A stretch of DNA of 64,000 bases from Rhizobium gallicum bv. gallicum R602sp (GTDB lineage: Bacteria > Pseudomonadota > Alphaproteobacteria > Rhizobiales > Rhizobiaceae), in NCBI RefSeq assembly GCF_000816845.1, contig NZ_CP006880.1:310001-374000 (forward strand). The letters are read 5' to 3'. Every line of letters starts with the position of its first letter. Position 1 is the first letter of the stretch. The notes below the pieces were generated by a model, which saw only the letters and a list, made by a program, of their open reading frames with translations, searched no databases and had not been told where the DNA came from. Positions 30,087-37,194 of the stretch are shown here, in pieces. Position numbers and translations under genes: made by a program.

Positions 30087-30719
30087 GTGCCACGTATCAT
30101 GATCCCACAGGGCCGCTCTGGCACCGAAGTCGACACGTGGCGCGAGCGCATACTCAATGTGGCGGAAGAGCACTTTCGCCGCATCGGTTACGAGAAGACA
30201 TCCGTGGCCGACATAGCTTCGTGCCTGGGGATGAGCAGTGCCAATATATACCGCTTTTTCCCCTCAAGGGCGGCTATCAACCAGTGTATCTGTGACCGCT
30301 TCGTTGGGCAGACTATCCAGCTAGCCGCCGCAGTCGCTCGGCGAGATGCGCCGGCCCATGACAAGCTCAGGAGACTTTTCAATCTGCTGTTTGAGGAGAG
30401 AAGAAGGCAGCTTATCGAGGAGAAGTACGTCCATGACCTGGTTGTCGCAGCGACGATAGAAAACTGGGCGATTATGAGCATCCATGGCAGTCGTCTCGTG
30501 ACCATGGTCCAGAAGATCATCGAAGAAGGAACTGAAGCAGGCGACCTTTCAGTCAATGATGCAGTTGAAGCTGCTCGAAGTGCGATGAACGCCTTCTTAT
30601 CGTTCTATCACCCAGTCCTTGTCGAGGCGCGGCTTCGAGACGCCGAGGCGGCCAAACAAGGCCCTGATCAGCAGATCAGCTTCATTCTTTCCGCTCTGGA
30701 TGGGTATCGCGCCTCGTAG
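30087..30719 (+). CDS. TetR family regulator downstream of the RND pump
   Basis: Regulator of about 210 residues with the HTH WRERILNVAEEHFRRIGYEK, TSVADIASCLGMSSANIYRF and FPSRAAINQ, typical of a TetR subgroup that often follows RND pump genes. The start is taken as GTG at 30087 because AGGGG lies a few bases upstream; ATG at 30099 is possible. It begins eight bases after the pump stop, so it is in the same operon. With another TetR at the head of the operon, the pump appears to have two TetR proteins, one divergent and one co-transcribed. Confidence 0.9.
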   Translation: MPRIMIPQGRSGTEVDTWRERILNVAEEHFRRIGYEKTSVADIASCLGMSSANIYRFFPSRAAINQCICDRFVGQTIQLAAAVARRDAPAHDKLRRLFNLLFEERRRQLIEEKYVHDLVVAATIENWAIMSIHGSRLVTMVQKIIEEGTEAGDLSVNDAVEAARSAMNAFLSFYHPVLVEARLRDAEAAKQGPDQQISFILSALDGYRAS

Positions 30720-31047
30720 GTCGTCGGTCATATAACTCTGCCCTCACCGATGAGCGCCGGGAAAGATGCGACGCCTAACGCTGTGCGCAACAATTTACGC
30801 AGGAGCTGGATTTTCAGGAAATCTATGGAGTCTTCCATGGCGCACCTGCAAATGGCCGTCACGCTTCGCGGAATTCAACCATTTGATCGGTTTGTCGCCC
30901 AAGGCGCTCCCATTCACCTGCCCTCTGCTTCTCGCTTTCCTTCTCGGCTGCCGCGTACAAAGCATGAAGGCTTGCGGGGGAGCGCAACTTCGGAACCTTA
31001 CCGTAGCAAGCCGCGTTTGCGAAAGGGCCCCTGCAAAAGGTTTCGAC
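30720..31047. other. Intergenic interval without a supported gene
   Basis: No start with a ribosome site fits here. The downstream frame stays open through this stretch, but the extra N-terminus is arginine- and cysteine-rich and unlike a leader. A minus-strand frame ending at 30859 has a charged tail, but no start or domain supports it. It probably holds the promoter of the fusion gene. Confidence 0.5.
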
Positions 31048-33591
31048 ATGCCGAAAGAGACAAATCGCCCGGCCATTCTCATCACGGGCTCGGCCGGCTT
31101 CCTGGGACAGGCGATCGCGCACGGTCTGAGTAATCGATATCGCGTCATTGGATTCGACGTCGCCGCCCCGAAAGGGCCGTCGGACAGCTTCGAGACAATC
31201 GAGGTTGACCTCACGTCCGACGACAGTGTCACCGCGGCAGTGGAGGCGGCCCGCGAGCGTAGTGGCGGTCGCTTGGCCTCGGTAATCCATCTCGCCGCCT
31301 ACTACGACACAACCGGCAAGAGCAACCCCAAATATCATACCGTCAATGTTCAGGGAACGCGCCGGCTGCTCGCCGCGCTGCAAAATCTTGAGACCGAGCA
31401 GTTCGTCTATTCAAGCACGCTGCTGGTGCACGCTCCGAGCCCGCGCAAAGGCGTGCGGATCAACGAGGACTCTCCGCTCGAGCCGTCCTGGGCCTATCCA
31501 AAGTCGAAGGCAGAGACCGAAGCGCTGGTTGCGAAGGAACGCGGCAAGATCAAGACGGTGATCCTGCGGCTTGCCGGCGTCTATGACGAGGATTGCCGCG
31601 CCGCTTTCATCGCCCAACAGATCGCCCGTATCTTCGAGCGGCTTCCGACCGCCTATCTGTTCAGTGGCGATCCGGGAGCAGGGCAGCCCTACCTGCACAA
31701 GGATGACCTTGTCGACGCAATTGTGCGCACCGTCGAGCGCCGCACCACGCTTTCCGATGAAAGCGTGGTGCTGATCGGCGAGGAAGAAACCCTGTCCTAC
31801 GAGGAGCTGCAGAAGCGTATCGGCCGGCTGCTTCATCGCCAGGACTGGAACACGCTCGTGCTGCCGAAAAGCCTCGCCAAGGCTGGCGTATGGATGCAGA
31901 CGGAGGTGCTCGACCAGGACACCGACATCCGGCCATGGATGATCGAGACCTCCGACGACCACTACGAGATAGACATATCCCGGGCCCGCGCGCTCATCGG
32001 CTGGGAACCCCGGCACAGCCTGGCTGCCACGCTGCCGGAAATGATCCGGCGGCTGAAAGAAGATCCAACCGACTGGTATGCGAAGAACAAGCTCGAATCC
32101 TCCGTTGTGGCGGCCTCCAAGCCGGAGATCGAAGAGGCAAAGAAGCGCCTGCGAGCGCCGCTCGAGCGCAGTGATGAGGAAGTCGAAGCCGCCGTGGAGC
32201 GACACCGGCTTTGGACGCTCTGGGCGCCACTGGCGAACGTGGCGCTCGGACTATGGCTCGTCGCCTCGCCAATGACGCTCGGTCTCTTTGATCCGGTCGT
32301 CGCCCCGTTCCCGCCAGCGCTGGGGCACGAGATCGCGGAGCCGGCCATCCGCGATGCGCGTCTGGGCGCAAGCGAGGTCCTGTCCGGTCTGCTTGTGGTG
32401 ACATTCGCTCTACTGGGGATGTACCGCCGCTGGTCCTCGGTACAATGGATCACAGCGCTTCTCGGCGTCTGGGTGATGTTCGCCCCGCTCGTCTTCTGGA
32501 CGACAAGTGCGGCCGCCTACGCAACCGACACACTCGCAGGCATTTTGATCGTCGCCTTTGCCGTGATGATCCCGCCGACGCCAGGAATTCGCGCGCGGGC
32601 GCTCGCGGCGGACGACGACCGCCCTCTCGGTTGGAGCTATTCGCCGTCCGCGTTCACTCAACGCCTCCCGATCGTGGCGCTCGCTTTCGTCGGCCTGTTC
32701 GTCTCGCGCTATCTCGCCGCTTACCAGTTGGGCCATATCGACGGCCTCTGGGATCCGTTCTTCGGCCCGGGCGAGGCGTCCGTTCGCAATGGCAGCGAGG
32801 CCGTCGTTACCTCCTGGGTGTCGAAAGGCTTTCCGATCGCCGATGCCGGGCTCGGGGCCTTCGCCTACGCGCTCGATATTCTCGCCGGCGCGATCGGCGA
32901 CCGCCGCCGCTGGCGCACGATGCCCTGGATGGTGCTGCTGTTCGGCCTGCTGATTGTGCCGCTTGGCGCGGTGAGCGTCTCCTTTATCATCATTCAGCCG
33001 CCCCTGATCGGCGCGCTGTGCACGCTTTGCATCATCCAGGCGGCCGTCACGGTCGTGCTCATCCCCTATTCGATCGACGAGGTGCTGGCGACGGTCCAGT
33101 ATTTGTGGAGAGCCAAGAGGGCGGGCGAGCCCCTCTGGCGGACATTCTGGATGGGCGGTCCCGCGCTTTCGGAAAACCAGACGCCCGGACCCGATCTAGA
33201 CCGTCCGGCTGCGCAGCTATTGAAGGAATTCATCACCGGCGGTGTGAACTTTCCCTGGACGCTGGTCACGAGCGTCCTGCTCGGCGCGCTATTGATGACG
33301 ACACCGCTCGTCTTCGGTAGCAATCCGCCTCTCTATTACAGCGACCATGTCGCTGGCTGCACCGTCATACTGGTTGCCATCATTGCGATGGCGGAGGTCG
33401 TTCGGCCGGTGCGTTTCCTTAATGGGGCGCTCGGCGCATGGGTCGCGGCATCGCCGTTTCTACTTGGCGGCGGCGGAATGGTGGGCACTTTGGCGGACGT
33501 GGCGATAGGGCTGGCCCTGGTGGTGCTCAGCCTGCCACGCGGGACGCGCAGCGAAGAGCACTATGGCGGCTGGGACCGGGCAATTGTCTGA
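31048..33591 (+). CDS. Fusion protein: extended SDR, SPW, VKOR-like and SPW domains
   Basis: Unusual 847-residue protein. Residues 1-330 form an NAD-dependent epimerase/dehydratase-type extended SDR: GSAGFLG at 14-20, catalytic Y150 and K154 in YPKSK, and GDPGAGQPYLHKDDLVDAIV. A charged linker follows. Residues about 388-510 are a first SPW-type four-helix membrane module (LWLVASPMTLGLFDP, LLGVWVMFAPLVFW). Residues about 537-700 resemble a vitamin K epoxide reductase membrane domain with one CTLC motif (C658, C661) and no loop cysteines. Residues 733-847 are a second SPW module (GAWVAASPFLLGG). The start is ATG at 31048, seven bases after AAAAGG. The protein is predicted to sit in the inner membrane with the SDR in the cytoplasm; its function is unknown. 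Confidence 0.88.
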   Translation: MPKETNRPAILITGSAGFLGQAIAHGLSNRYRVIGFDVAAPKGPSDSFETIEVDLTSDDSVTAAVEAARERSGGRLASVIHLAAYYDTTGKSNPKYHTVNVQGTRRLLAALQNLETEQFVYSSTLLVHAPSPRKGVRINEDSPLEPSWAYPKSKAETEALVAKERGKIKTVILRLAGVYDEDCRAAFIAQQIARIFERLPTAYLFSGDPGAGQPYLHKDDLVDAIVRTVERRTTLSDESVVLIGEEETLSYEELQKRIGRLLHRQDWNTLVLPKSLAKAGVWMQTEVLDQDTDIRPWMIETSDDHYEIDISRARALIGWEPRHSLAATLPEMIRRLKEDPTDWYAKNKLESSVVAASKPEIEEAKKRLRAPLERSDEEVEAAVERHRLWTLWAPLANVALGLWLVASPMTLGLFDPVVAPFPPALGHEIAEPAIRDARLGASEVLSGLLVVTFALLGMYRRWSSVQWITALLGVWVMFAPLVFWTTSAAAYATDTLAGILIVAFAVMIPPTPGIRARALAADDDRPLGWSYSPSAFTQRLPIVALAFVGLFVSRYLAAYQLGHIDGLWDPFFGPGEASVRNGSEAVVTSWVSKGFPIADAGLGAFAYALDILAGAIGDRRRWRTMPWMVLLFGLLIVPLGAVSVSFIIIQPPLIGALCTLCIIQAAVTVVLIPYSIDEVLATVQYLWRAKRAGEPLWRTFWMGGPALSENQTPGPDLDRPAAQLLKEFITGGVNFPWTLVTSVLLGALLMTTPLVFGSNPPLYYSDHVAGCTVILVAIIAMAEVVRPVRFLNGALGAWVAASPFLLGGGGMVGTLADVAIGLALVVLSLPRGTRSEEHYGGWDRAIV

Positions 33592-33667
33592 ACTGCGCAA
33601 GTTCGGCTGTTTTCTCGGGTGAGGCATTGCCGCATGGCGAGCCTGCCGCGCCGCGCGTCATCCTGTT

Positions 33668-34447
33668 TCAGGTCATCTCCGCAAGCGCCATGATGAGCAG
33701 GAAACCGAAGGCGCTGGCAACCGCCGATGACTGCTGGAACTGATGCGATTCCGCCTCGGGCACGAGGTCGGTGATCGTAAGGTAGAACATGCCGCCCGCC
33801 CCCATCGCAAAAAGAAAACCTAGAACTGCCTCTGGGAGTCCCCTCAGTAGAAACCACCCCGTGAAGGTTGAGACGAACACGGAAAGGCCGATCAACGAGG
33901 TCCAGCCGAGAATTTGCCAATTTGCATCGTTCTCCTCCTCGTCGAGGACCAACTCACCAATGCTCATGCCCTCGCTCAGATTGTCGATGCATATCGCCAA
34001 CCCCACAATCAGCGCGACGCCAGGTTCGAAGGCGACGCCGATGCCGATGATCATCCCTTCGATAAGTTCCTCGGCGCTCGTGCCGCTGGCGAGCACGGCA
34101 ACGTTGCTGCCGCGGGGTCTCTTGCGCCGGTGCAAACGATCGACCTCGCGCTTCTGATCCGCCTCCGGTCCTGCCGTTCGCCAGCGATTGACGTAAAGGT
34201 CGAGAATGTAGACGAGAGTGAGGCCGATGAGAAAACCGCCGGCCACGAGTGGGACAGATGCCCATTCAAGGGATTTTGGCATCATCTCGAATGCGAAAGT
34301 GCCAAGTAGGACGCCGGCTGCAAAGCCGACAGCAATCGAAAGCAGCAGGCTCGACGGTCGGATGCAGATCGTCACCAGGCCGCCAAGCGGCGACGCAAGA
34401 GCCGCGGCGGAGGCTACTCCCAACATGATTAGCAGATCATTGTCCAT
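33668..34447 (-). CDS. ZIP family divalent metal transporter, divergent
   Basis: Membrane protein of about 259 residues with eight likely spans and a positively charged middle loop (KREVDRLHRRKRPRG, about residues 105-120), as in ZIP permeases. The two metal-site helices are altered: SAEELIEGMIIG replaces the usual HNxPEG block, and CIDNLSEGMSIG replaces the second HNIPEG block. The histidines are thus exchanged for acidic residues while the EG pairs remain. This suggests an intact but changed metal selectivity. The start is ATG at 34447; the ribosome site is weak. It is convergent with the fusion gene and about 76 bases from it. Confidence 0.82.
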   Translation of the reverse strand: MDNDLLIMLGVASAAALASPLGGLVTICIRPSSLLLSIAVGFAAGVLLGTFAFEMMPKSLEWASVPLVAGGFLIGLTLVYILDLYVNRWRTAGPEADQKREVDRLHRRKRPRGSNVAVLASGTSAEELIEGMIIGIGVAFEPGVALIVGLAICIDNLSEGMSIGELVLDEEENDANWQILGWTSLIGLSVFVSTFTGWFLLRGLPEAVLGFLFAMGAGGMFYLTITDLVPEAESHQFQQSSAVASAFGFLLIMALAEMT

Positions 34448-34736
34448 CACCGCCGCCCAGACATGGCTCAGCCAGCATTCTTTTCCGGTGAACTTCCTCG
34501 GCAACAGGCGGGAGCGGTGTTTGCCTGATGGCGGCGACGGCGCCAAGAGTGACAGTACCGCCCGCAATTGCCGGCTGCCAGAAATAGTTTATCAATATGG
34601 TCGCCCATCCAATGTCGTAAGGCGATCGCGAAGCGCCAAAAGCCAAAACGGTCAGGCCGGTAGAGTTCCAATCTTGCGAGAATTCAGCGCCCAATTGAGC
34701 GGCGGTCGCACTCACGAGCTTTCTTCCAAATCCCAC
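34437..34736 (-). CDS. Possible small membrane protein, weakly supported
   Basis: A 99-residue frame beginning at GTG 34736 and ending inside the start region of the ZIP gene. It contains one hydrophobic stretch (WATILINYFWQPAIAGGTVT). It has no clear ribosome site and no family was recognised. It could be a real upstream partner of the ZIP gene or a chance frame. Confidence 0.25.
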   Translation of the reverse strand: MGFGRKLVSATAAQLGAEFSQDWNSTGLTVLAFGASRSPYDIGWATILINYFWQPAIAGGTVTLGAVAAIRQTPLPPVAEEVHRKRMLAEPCLGGGDGQ

Positions 34737-34950
34737 GTTGACATGCCGTGAGCTGACGGGCCGCTGTATTGCGTTCCTGCATAGGCCGGCCCCAAAAGCT
34801 AAGATTTAACCCAAACCTTAGGCGCAGATCCTGTGTCATCGGATATGTGTCGCGGATTCTAATCCTTTCAAGGCGATGAAGTCGGTTGGCATCGTGCGGA
34901 TGCGAACTGCGGCACACGCTCGAGCCCCCCAAGTTGGACGTTTCGCAACT

Positions 34951-35127
34951 CCAGCGAGGCTTGTATCGAGGAAATGGAGGCCAGCCGCCTTGAATTTTCC
35001 TACAAGATCGATCGCGTCCTGCAGGGTCTTCGTCACGGCCGTCAAACTCGATGACGCCGCAGCGAGCGGTCAGCGGACGGTCCTCGGGCCAGACTTCACG
35101 AACGGCCGCAACCTTTTCGAACTGATC
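34951..35127 (-). pseudogene. Old Yellow Enzyme (NADH:flavin oxidoreductase) fragment
   Basis: Reading down the minus strand from 35127 gives DQFEKVAAVREVWPEDRPLT, then ARCGVIEFDGRDE. After a frameshift comes TLQDAIDLVGKFKAAGLHFL with DTSLA. Together these match the middle of Old Yellow Enzyme-type flavoproteins (the R-x-G-V-I-E-x-D-G-R-D-E and L-D-F-L-D-V-S region). Both ends of the gene are missing. It is one of several redox-enzyme relics in this part of the window. The flanking bases to 35316 hold nothing recognisable. Confidence 0.7.
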
Positions 35128-35316
35128 GGCGGTTTGCCCCTGCCTTCGTGAAAGCCCACCCGCTTCATGCCGGTCACGCGCTGCCGCTATCCAGTGGCGT
35201 ACCGGTGCGGGGTAGCGCGTCCTTCCACCCTCATCCTCGAAAGTGAGGATGAGGAGCGTAAAGGGCTGCCCCTCCTTGGGCGCCCAAGCGTTCTGATCGC
35301 ATCGATAGGGATCGCT

Positions 35317-36690
35317 TTAGTGCCTGCCGGCCAAGTCCAGCACTTTCTCCTGGACAGGGTCTCGCCCCTGCGCATAAGCCCTGAAACTCAGCTCAACTGT
35401 GGTTTCCGGCGCAATCGAGATACCCCGCGGGCCGAAGGCGACAGTCGCCCAATAGCAGTCGCCGACGTCAAAGCAGCCGGTCTCGTAGTCATGAAATTGG
35501 TGGCTGTAGCGAACGGCGATCTGGGAGTTCGGCAACTTGACATACTTGCCCTCGGACCAGAACTGGCCGCCATCCCCCATCGGTTCGCCGACTAGAGTGA
35601 CCTTGTCGCCTCCCTCTCCCTTAAGCATGGCCGCGGTCGTAATGCCGGCAGAGAAGGTTGCCCTCCCGACAAGCACGAACACACGTCCGTCGCGCGGCAC
35701 AAGTCGAGGTATCGCCCGGGAAAACAGGATCGTGTTGAAGAAGTCGCCGCCATTGTTCAGGCGGAGGTCGACGATGATGTGCTTGGGCTGCATCGGCAGG
35801 ATTTTGTCGAGGACAACGCCGGCGAACTTGTCCGGCAGGGGCGTTTCGTCGATGCTTCTTGCCATGTCGTTACGGATGTAGAGCACCTTCTTGGAATCAT
35901 CGAGGAAGCGCGCCACATCATTGCGCTTGCCATAGATCGGCGGCAGCTCCTTGCGGCCGTCGAGCAGATGGCGCCAGCGTCCCGGCAAGTCCGGATCGTC
36001 GGGAATAAGCACGGAATAGCCCCTGTTCAGGCTTGCCTTGCGCTCATCGCCGGGATCTTCGCCTTTCGTAGGCGCAAGCTCGACGATCTCCGTCCGTCCA
36101 TCGTCAAACTGCAAGGTCAATGGAACGTGGTCCGTGCCGTCGACGGCGCCGATCTGCTCAAGGACGGCGGGCGCAACCAGATAGCCGGGGGAGAGAAAAC
36201 GAATCCGCTGGTCCGTGCCGGGAAGGTAGGCGCGCACCCGGTCGAGCGCTTCCTGCGTTGTTAGGGAGCCGATTCCGTCGATTCGTGCGCCAAGCAACCA
36301 TTCGAAATCCGGGTGAGTCTTGACGATATAAAGCCCATCGGAAAACGACCACACGCGTACGGGAAGGTCGGCGCCAAGCAAAGTCCCGACATTGGCGTTG
36401 GTGTGTCCGTTGCGCGCGATGGCCACGGCCTTCATCACTTCGAGCGCGAACTCTTCCGGCTCCAGATCTTCCACCGCAGAGGCGGTCTCATCAAGATGCC
36501 GGCCGAACGCCACCCTCTGGCTGTCGCTGAAGCTTTTATCCAGCGGAGCCCATTTCTCTTTTAAAAAGGTAAGATCCTCTCGCATCTGGGGCGGCGTCAA
36601 TTTTACATCAGCCGCCTGCGCAAAACCGGTAACAGCTAGCGTGAGGGCCACCGCGGCAGTTCGAGGGAGTGCGAGCCATCCTGGGGACAT
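35317..36690 (-). CDS. Secreted S41-family (C-terminal processing protease-like) peptidase
   Basis: Exported protein of 457 residues with a Sec signal peptide (AAVALTLAVTGFAQAADVK, cleavage near residue 26). The C-terminal half has the S41 fold marks: HIIVDLRLNNGGDFFNTILF and VFVLVGRATFSAGITTAAML, which carries the likely nucleophilic serine, followed by VGEPMGDGGQFWSEGK. A PDZ-like middle segment is not obvious; residues 130-190 may play that part. It may be a periplasmic protease or a non-proteolytic relative. The gene stands alone, with no partner visible. Confidence 0.85.
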   Translation of the reverse strand: MSPGWLALPRTAAVALTLAVTGFAQAADVKLTPPQMREDLTFLKEKWAPLDKSFSDSQRVAFGRHLDETASAVEDLEPEEFALEVMKAVAIARNGHTNANVGTLLGADLPVRVWSFSDGLYIVKTHPDFEWLLGARIDGIGSLTTQEALDRVRAYLPGTDQRIRFLSPGYLVAPAVLEQIGAVDGTDHVPLTLQFDDGRTEIVELAPTKGEDPGDERKASLNRGYSVLIPDDPDLPGRWRHLLDGRKELPPIYGKRNDVARFLDDSKKVLYIRNDMARSIDETPLPDKFAGVVLDKILPMQPKHIIVDLRLNNGGDFFNTILFSRAIPRLVPRDGRVFVLVGRATFSAGITTAAMLKGEGGDKVTLVGEPMGDGGQFWSEGKYVKLPNSQIAVRYSHQFHDYETGCFDVGDCYWATVAFGPRGISIAPETTVELSFRAYAQGRDPVQEKVLDLAGRH

Positions 36691-37194
36691 ACGTGCTTTC
36701 CTCTAGTTCGAATTCAGGCGGTCTTCGCCGCCACATTAATCATGACGATCGGGTTCGCGGGCTTGCGACAATTGTGCGCGAAAAAATCGGAAAGCCATTC
36801 AGTGCGATCCGCATCGGCGTGCGCCTGATGCGAGGCGTATCTTGCTGGGCAAGCCCGTAGGCGGCATTGCGAAATGGCCATAACTGTGGTCACTCGTGAT
36901 GCCCGTTATGCTTCCGCGTTGAAGCGAGAGGGGTGCACAGAACATCGAAATCGACATTCGCGATGTGAGCGGGCTTCACGATGTTTTCCACAGTGGCCGC
37001 CGTGCGTTCCCTTCTGAACCCGCCGACAGATCCTCCACAGACAATATGCGTGGAAAGGAAGGTCCCATGGCGCCTACCTAGAATTTTCACTAAGAAATCC
37101 AGCTGGATTTCTGGCCCAAATAAGGCCGTCGGCGGTTCGATTCCACTCAAGACCTGGTGTAATCGGGCAGTTGCTCATCTGCGTTAGAGCCTTT
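36691..37194. other. Intergenic interval, no supported gene
   Basis: No convincing coding frame was found. A stretch at 37131-37154 looks like a tRNA T-arm (GGTTCGATTCC), but the stem has a mismatch and no acceptor or anticodon arm could be folded. A near-copy of the same 24 bases occurs at 61005. The first part may hold the promoter of the S41 gene. Confidence 0.5.

What the first reader, a model, noticed from the sequence alone, without database searches (positions are those of the whole stretch)
31048..33591. Single protein joining an extended SDR, two SPW modules and a VKOR-like CTLC membrane domain
Seen: a Rossmann SDR with intact GSAGFLG and Y150/K154, then two separated SPW-type membrane modules around a VKOR-like helix bundle with only one CxxC (C658, C661). 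Known: VKOR proteins normally use a second loop cysteine pair to pass electrons from quinone reduction to a thioredoxin-like partner, and here that pair is absent. Inference: the SDR may supply reducing power or a nucleotide-sugar or quinol substrate to a membrane redox step, an uncharacterised NAD(P)H-to-membrane-thiol device.
Basis: partly seen in the sequence, partly recalled or inferred. Interest (0 to 1): 0.7.

Follow-up and report, generated by a model that had tools for sequence, protein, structure and literature searches.

The report
Enzyme fused to VKOR-like membrane protein
This rhizobial gene encodes a soluble NAD-type enzyme joined to a twelve-helix membrane protein that contains a cut-down relative of the vitamin K recycling enzyme; it belongs to a large, seemingly unstudied family often found among metal resistance genes, and here it carries a stress-response promoter.

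Summary
One 847-aa ORF (31048-33591) carries an extended SDR, an SPW module, a VKOR domain and a second SPW module, over Pfam cut-offs. It is a widespread, apparently uncharacterised family: the 120 listed of 1740 hits share these domains, and the membrane half is also a separate gene in Haloarchaea, Bacteroidota and Proteobacteria. The missing loop-cysteine pair is a family trait: 0 of 459 rows have two loop cysteines. The CxxC is in 440 of 459 rows; 16 of the 19 exceptions lack both cysteines, and the 12 full-length ones keep an intact SDR. Sequence-based topology puts SDR and CxxC on opposite membrane faces, against a direct NAD(P)H-to-thiol device. Diverged relatives adjoin metal genes in 40-41 of 50 loci, the window's clade in 1 of 30 (control 24/28 against 5/45). 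The window copy instead has a GGAAC-N17-CGTT (EcfG-type) promoter 56 bp upstream, conserved in Sinorhizobium/Ensifer. Best reading: a stress- or metal-linked membrane redox accessory. The mechanism is inferred; no structure could be predicted.

The parts
30992..31017 (+). EcfG/RpoE2-type general stress promoter, GGAAC-N17-CGTT, 56 bp upstream of the start codon
   Evidence: Only exact GGAAC-N16/17-CGTT match on either strand of the 64 kb; same motif 46-66 bp upstream in 10 of 13 Sinorhizobium/Ensifer loci, one-mismatch form at 34 bp in the other 3; R. etli EcfG1 motif GGAAC-N16-CGTT (passage of PMC3892343)
31048..33591 (+). SDR-SPW-VKOR-SPW fusion protein, 847 aa
31069..32079 (+). extended SDR domain (residues 8-344), predicted cytosolic; GxxGxxG, D37, T124, Y150, S153, K154
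   Evidence: Pfam Epimerase; conservation
32080..32220 (+). charged linker (residues 345-391), predicted cytosolic; His/Met-rich in stand-alone relatives and some metal-island fusions, not here
32221..32592 (+). first SPW module, four predicted TM helices (residues 392-515)
   Evidence: Pfam SPW at residues 438-506; hydropathy
32668..33075 (+). VKOR-like four-helix domain (residues 541-676) without loop cysteines
   Evidence: Pfam VKOR; alignment to canonical VKORs
33019..33030 (+). CTLC motif (C658, C661), predicted periplasmic end of TM8
   Evidence: CxxC in 324 of 339 and 116 of 120 rows
33256..33534 (+). second SPW module, four predicted TM helices (residues 737-829)
   Evidence: Pfam SPW; hydropathy
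33668..34450 (-). ZIP-family metal transporter, convergent neighbour; collinear with the fusion gene in some Sinorhizobium/Ensifer loci
   Evidence: Pfam Zip; blastn match over fusion gene and ZIP at 77-81% identity in L013, L026, L027, L029, L043 of 14 loci compared

Best explanation
A 12-helix inner-membrane protein (4 SPW + 4 VKOR + 4 SPW helices) carries an active-looking NAD-type extended SDR on its cytosolic face. The VKOR-like bundle keeps the CxxC at the periplasmic face but has no loop cysteine pair and no thioredoxin domain, so if it does VKOR-type chemistry, quinone or quinol exchanges electrons with C658/C661 and the pair deals directly with a small thiol, a metal ion or a protein partner. 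The SDR most likely converts its own carbonyl/alcohol substrate with NAD(H) at the membrane and is docked there for channelling or co-regulation, not for electron transfer to the thiols. The family works as an accessory of envelope/metal stress (metal-resistance islands in the diverged clade); the window's Sinorhizobium-type branch has come under the general stress sigma factor EcfG. Shown by sequence: architecture, absence of the loop pair, conservation, neighbourhood, promoter motif. Inferred: topology, quinone use, NAD specificity, regulation by EcfG, role in stress.
For: Domain hits. SDR catalytic residues in 204 of 204 rows. No row of 459 with two loop cysteines; CxxC in 440 of 459. Canonical VKORs have the loop pair where this family has none. 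Mean Lys+Arg in predicted inside loops sums to about 22.6, in outside loops to about 3.3. Metal genes in 24 of 28 loci against 5 of 45 control stretches taken from 24 of the same 28 genomes, p 1.3e-10 (counts unchanged when self-derived seeds are left out); 41 of 50 against 1 of 30 by clade, 40 of 50 without self-derived seeds. Copper-protein/GH15/classical SDR neighbours in archaea and bacteria. EcfG-type promoter; NepR gene in the genome. A published passage says that loop-cysteine mutants of human VKOR stay active, so a one-pair VKOR is chemically plausible (PMC5732223).
Against: No structure model, so the quinone pocket is untested. The membrane-half profile found no solved structure, canonical VKORs included (0 at E up to 1), and aligned to two canonical VKORs only weakly (8.2 and 6.2 bits). 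19 of 459 rows lack an intact CxxC, so thiol chemistry cannot be the only function. The window copy has no copper or mercury gene in the 64 kb by the seeds used; only its RND pump rings, with the CusA seed, and that pump scores best as a multidrug type. With the strict copper/mercury gene set the clade contrast is 22 of 50 against 1 of 30 and the control 16 of 28 against 3 of 45. Related loci are not independent. No expression or mutant data were found.
Confidence: 0.4

Rival explanations
1. One reading: the SDR oxidises or reduces a mobile carrier so that NAD(P)H reducing power reaches the membrane CxxC.
For: Both halves are fused in one chain and the SDR is intact; the CxxC is in 440 of 459 rows; a separate SDR gene lies 35 bp upstream of the membrane gene in Pontibacter.
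Against: Predicted opposite membrane faces; 12 full-length CxxC-less members keep an intact SDR; the haloarchaeal and Stutzerimonas membrane genes examined stand beside an SDR of classical type, not an extended one.
Confidence: 0.15
2. A metal-handling membrane protein: the VKOR/SPW bundle binds or moves Cu(I)/Hg(II), with CxxC as a metal site and the SDR as a stress-metabolism add-on.
For: Metal genes at 41 of 50 diverged loci (40 without self-derived seeds); His/Met-rich N-termini of stand-alone forms (H+M fraction 0.168 in 49 rows against 0.057 in 208 fused rows); ZIP neighbour in window and S. meliloti.
Against: The clade that holds the window has metal genes in 1 of 30 loci and the linkers of it that were printed are not His/Met-rich; all 12 CxxC-less locus rows are in metal-labelled loci, though for L022 and L024 that label rests on a plastocyanin-type gene only, in L024 the seed itself; some of the 49 stand-alone rows are fragments of fused proteins.
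Confidence: 0.25
3. The VKOR bundle has become a structural or quinone-binding scaffold and the SDR alone is catalytic (membrane-anchored sugar/lipid SDR).
For: SDR catalytic residues in 204 of 204 rows; CxxC loss needs two events on the tree, with pN/pS 0.09-0.27 in the membrane half of three CxxC-less pairs; GH15/trehalase-like genes nearby in some islands.
Against: The CxxC is kept in 96% of rows and in 16 of 19 exceptions is lost as a pair, which points to a function where present; stand-alone membrane proteins without a fused SDR are common, four of them CxxC-less.
Confidence: 0.2

Closest known systems
VKOR family (PF07884), including bacterial VKOR-thioredoxin fusions
   Same: Profile match over cut-off, four-helix bundle, Ser589, CxxC at the start of the fourth helix
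   Different: No loop cysteine pair in 459 rows, no thioredoxin domain, flanked by SPW modules, often fused to an SDR; 19 rows lack an intact CxxC
SPW repeat proteins (PF03779), such as the 126-aa frame elsewhere in this genome
   Same: Same Pfam module
   Different: Here two modules flank a VKOR domain within a large protein
Extended SDRs (PF01370), GalE/3-beta-HSD-like
   Same: TGxxGxxG, YxxxK, T124, D37
   Different: None of the 25 NCBIfam models shown (of 31 matched) reaches its cut-off; closest solved chain 4id9, E 4e-12
Copper-linked cassette of four-helix copper-binding protein + GH15 + classical SDR + stand-alone SPW-VKOR-SPW (Haloarchaea, Stutzerimonas)
   Same: Homologous membrane half (40-47% identity)
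   Different: The window copy is fused to an extended SDR and stands without Csp, GH15 or copper genes
Hypothetical VKOR on the plasmid-like region of Sulfobacillus thermotolerans (PMC6803676, listing abstract and two passages)
   Same: VKOR gene on a plasmid-like region that carries metal-resistance determinants
   Different: Whether it belongs to this family was not tested

Membership tests
VKOR (PF07884) | Profile score over the curated cut-off | tested here: met
   80.2 bits against 27.5
VKOR (PF07884) | Active-site CxxC | tested here: met
   C658/C661 in the window; 440 of 459 rows
VKOR (PF07884) | Loop cysteine pair between helices 1 and 2 (stated as conserved in a passage of PMC5732223) | tested here: not met
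   0 of 459 rows with two loop cysteines, 3 with one; canonical L120/L121 have both
VKOR (PF07884) | Thioredoxin-like domain (usual for proteobacterial VKORs: passage of PMC4555120) | tested here: not met
   No thioredoxin Pfam hit up to E 1
VKOR (PF07884) | Sequence match to a solved VKOR structure | tested here: not met
   0 chains at E up to 1 with the membrane-half profile
VKOR (PF07884) | Quinone binding and thiol oxidation activity | not testable with these tools
DsbB (PF02600) | Profile match | tested here: not met
   No hit listed up to E 1
Extended SDR (PF01370) | Glycine-rich motif and YxxxK with Ser/Thr | tested here: met
   G14, G17, Y150, S153, K154 in 204 of 204 rows, T or S at 124 in 204, G20 in 203
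SPW (PF03779) | Profile score over cut-off | tested here: met
   72.2 bits against 31.5; two places over cut-off
EcfG general stress regulon | GGAAC-N16/17-CGTT promoter at a fitting distance | tested here: met
   30992, 56 bp upstream; conserved; NepR in the genome
EcfG general stress regulon | EcfG-dependent expression | not testable with these tools
   RpoE2 tables of PMC3616915 are in supplements that could not be read; tags SMb2000x/2001x are not in its main text
Copper/metal-resistance island gene | Metal-resistance genes beside it | tested here: not met
   Window scan: only the RND pump, with the CusA seed; met for 41 of 50 diverged relatives (40 without self-derived seeds)

The most novel reading that the evidence does not exclude
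A new class of one-pair VKOR membrane enzyme, spread over Archaea and Bacteria, in which SPW four-helix modules replace the loop-cysteine/thioredoxin relay; it links a cytosolic NAD-dependent SDR reaction to quinone or metal redox at the periplasmic face during metal or general stress, and has been moved from metal islands into the rhizobial general stress regulon.
Probability: 0.25. Interest if true: 0.75.

Novelty: new variant of a known kind. Interest (0 to 1): 0.52.

Why it matters
Published passages treat CxxC plus loop cysteines as conserved across VKOR homologues (PMC5732223). Here is a family with thousands of scored hits (1740, 2141 and 4505 in three capped, overlapping searches) in which none of 459 rows examined has the loop pair, and some lineages have dropped the CxxC too while staying under selection. 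It adjoins metal-resistance genes in many genomes and a stress promoter in Sinorhizobium, so a knock-out in Sinorhizobium meliloti, where an 82% identical gene lies on pSymB, would test it.

Tried and rejected
Considered and rejected: a chance fusion or assembly error (same domains in the 120 listed homologs); the longer ORF from 30766 as the true start; the split halves of L055 and L070 as real gene fission (nearly identical intact siblings on the tree, so probably frameshifts; inference). The membrane-half profile found no solved structure. NCBIfam gave no family for three stand-alone membrane proteins. The Csp model of NCBIfam matched two of the copper-binding proteins below its cut-off (37 bits against 100). 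The lone SPW protein elsewhere in the genome showed no exact stress promoter on its own strand in the stretch held; one match lies on the other strand. Literature: no paper held both 'SPW repeat' and VKOR, none 'SPW repeat', none VKOR with EcfG; VKOR+fused+epimerase (3 papers), VKOR+copper terms (4 papers; 20 listed of 116), VKOR+fusion terms (9) and Csp/VKOR terms (10 listed of 41) showed none on this family in titles and abstract starts. One paper lists SMb20013 as 'putative oxidoreductase' (passage); I could not tie that tag to the ortholog. The terms searched for in PMC3616915 and PMC6180224 (locus tags SMb2000x/2001x; in the second also 'vitamin K' and 'epimerase') and in PMC8877191 ('epimerase', 'vitamin K') were not found.

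Caveats on counts: rows are hardly deduplicated (458 distinct strings in 459 rows; they include the window and its own copy L107, and many close relatives). The tree (91 rows) left out 8 redundant Sinorhizobium loci, L107 and the CxxC columns; it is a quick search with long branches and an assumed root. In one search only starts with more than 150 bases upstream were counted (89, window included): 16 had an exact match, 11 of them the Sinorhizobium-type set with the window, 5 at other distances (110-161 bp). Metal seeds came from relatives' neighbourhoods; leaving out each locus's own seeds changes 41 of 50 to 40 of 50 and nothing in the control. L098 groups with the solitary clade on the tree but was counted among the 50 diverged loci.

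Full report
What is there. The ORF 31048-33591 encodes 847 residues. Pfam finds an Epimerase-type extended SDR (10-241), VKOR (541-676) and SPW (three stretches, best 737-829), all over their cut-offs. The protein has four cysteines: 183, 658, 661, 771. None of the 25 NCBIfam models shown reaches its cut-off. It is the only VKOR domain found in the 7.3-Mb genome, which holds one other SPW match, in a 126-aa frame.

Context in the window. The left block (20-30.3 kb) matches a Rhizobium plasmid at 87% and the right block (37.1-44 kb) others at 98%; these records do not cover the stretch between, which fits an insert. From about 30.97 to 34.45 kb the window is collinear with L027 (80%), promoter region, fusion gene and convergent ZIP gene together; L026 has the same in two pieces, and L013, L029 and L043 match from about 31042 on (77-78%); of the 14 loci compared the other nine match only the fusion gene, with or without the promoter region. 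Of the same-genus genomes G001-G119, G085 has a full-length relative (48%), G063 one in two frames (46%) and G073 a C-terminal fragment (76%); the other matches listed cover mainly the SDR part. So the gene is accessory here and probably came from Sinorhizobium-type relatives (inference).

A family, not an oddity. The first search scored 1740 relatives; the 120 listed all carry Epimerase, VKOR and SPW. The S. meliloti ortholog is on pSymB at 82%. The membrane half alone found 2141 proteins, many of 460-495 aa without an SDR domain; the Natrinema stand-alone protein found 4505, of which the 120 listed are 114 short and 6 fused by length. These searches score at most about 8000 candidates each. 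In an even draw of the phylum, 6 of 398 genomes, the window's own included, have the membrane half.

How the halves are joined. In Pontibacter the extended SDR is a separate gene 35 bp upstream of the SPW-VKOR-SPW gene. In Natrinema, Halocatena, Haladaptatus and Stutzerimonas the membrane gene stands next to an SDR of classical type and a GH15 gene, with a four-helix copper-binding protein annotated nearby in three of these four; Haladaptatus has a further NAD(P)H-binding gene, which did not match the window protein. Cupriavidus has both the fusion and copper-binding protein, GH15 and SDR genes. Rooted on the archaeal/Pontibacter rows, the tree places stand-alone forms near the base (root assumed).

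Missing loop pair. Two canonical VKORs from the same phylum (L120, L121; their C-terminal CPxC part looks thioredoxin-like by eye) have two loop cysteines; the family profile aligns to them weakly (6.2 and 8.2 bits) and has none there. Of 339 rows none has two loop cysteines and 3 have one; of 120 further rows none has any. The family keeps Ser589, which aligns with a serine of the canonical SASPYS stretch.

CxxC. It is present in 324 of 339 and 116 of 120 rows. Of the 19 exceptions 16 lack both cysteines and 3 lack one. Twelve of the 16 are full-length fusions with G14, G17, Y150, S153, K154, S589 and RWRTMPW intact (G20 is Ala in one); the other four are stand-alone by length. On the tree of 91 rows the change needs two events. 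In three CxxC-less pairs the membrane half has pN/pS 0.09-0.27, against 0.13, 0.26 and 0.34 in three CxxC pairs. So the pair probably matters where present, but the protein has a function without it.

SDR. G14, G17, Y150, S153 and K154 are invariant in 204 rows, position 124 is Thr or Ser in all, and D37 is Asp in 201. By general knowledge of SDRs (recalled) an acidic residue here favours NAD(H).

Topology. Averaged hydropathy gives 12 peaks after residue 390; loops alternate with a positive-inside bias, about 22.6 Lys+Arg inside (6.2 of them in the long linker) against 3.3 outside. The SDR and both termini are then cytosolic and C658/C661 lie at the periplasmic end of TM8.

Neighbourhood. Of 50 diverged loci 41 have at least one metal gene in the stretch held, up to 9 kb each side (12 seed kinds: copper, mercury, MerR-type regulators, CDF and RND parts, plastocyanin); of 30 rhizobial-type loci one. 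Without self-derived seeds this is 40 of 50, and with strict copper/mercury genes 22 of 50 against 1 of 30. Against stretches from the same set of genomes: 24 of 28 against 5 of 45, strict 16 of 28 against 3 of 45. The window itself has none except its RND pump, which scores best as a multidrug type.

Stress promoter. GGAACCTTACCGTAGCAAGCCGCGTT at 30992 is the only exact hit in the window, 56 bp before the ATG. Ten of 13 Sinorhizobium/Ensifer loci have the motif at 46-66 bp and the other three a one-mismatch form at 34 bp; background is 0.005 per 250 bp of strand. R. etli EcfG1 and Sphingopyxis use GGAAC-N16-CGTT (passages of PMC3892343 and PMC7083833); the window spacer is 17, the relatives have 16 or 17. 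NepR is present.

Verdict. Real, well conserved and uncharacterised as far as my searches show; a new variant of the VKOR superfamily. The direct NAD(P)H-to-thiol device is unlikely on predicted topology and on the CxxC-less members. The most likely role is a stress- or metal-linked membrane redox accessory; the reaction itself remains unknown.

Noticed in passing
L019, L020, L025, L017 (neighbours of the membrane gene): GH15 trehalase-like hydrolase, SPW-VKOR-SPW and classical SDR, in three of the four with a four-helix copper-binding protein, occur together on haloarchaeal and Stutzerimonas plasmids; the hydrolase's role is unexplained.
   Followed up: partly
L076:10354-11013 and the matching genes of L080, L083, L085, L087: Five Sphingomonadales loci, all with CxxC-less (STPA) copies, share a gene that reads like a peroxiredoxin (by eye), just downstream of the fusion gene in L076.
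   Followed up: no
L018:5563-7131; L017:5689-7146; P0177, P0203: Stand-alone membrane proteins have a His/Met-rich N-terminus, predicted cytosolic, as has the linker of some metal-island fusions; the rhizobial linkers looked at lack it.
   Followed up: partly
window 30300-37136: Probable insert between two blocks that match Rhizobium plasmids; the right block from about 37136 is 98% identical to R. laguerreae/leguminosarum plasmids.
   Followed up: partly
L014:7191-7658, L021:3971-4435 and relatives: A small protein of about 155 aa, membrane-like by eye and without a Pfam match, recurs next to the fusion gene in several loci.
   Followed up: no
L013:6701-7945: In S. meliloti a Gfo/Idh/MocA oxidoreductase gene ends 55 bp upstream of the fusion gene and may be co-transcribed; no such gene was seen directly upstream in the window.
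   Followed up: no
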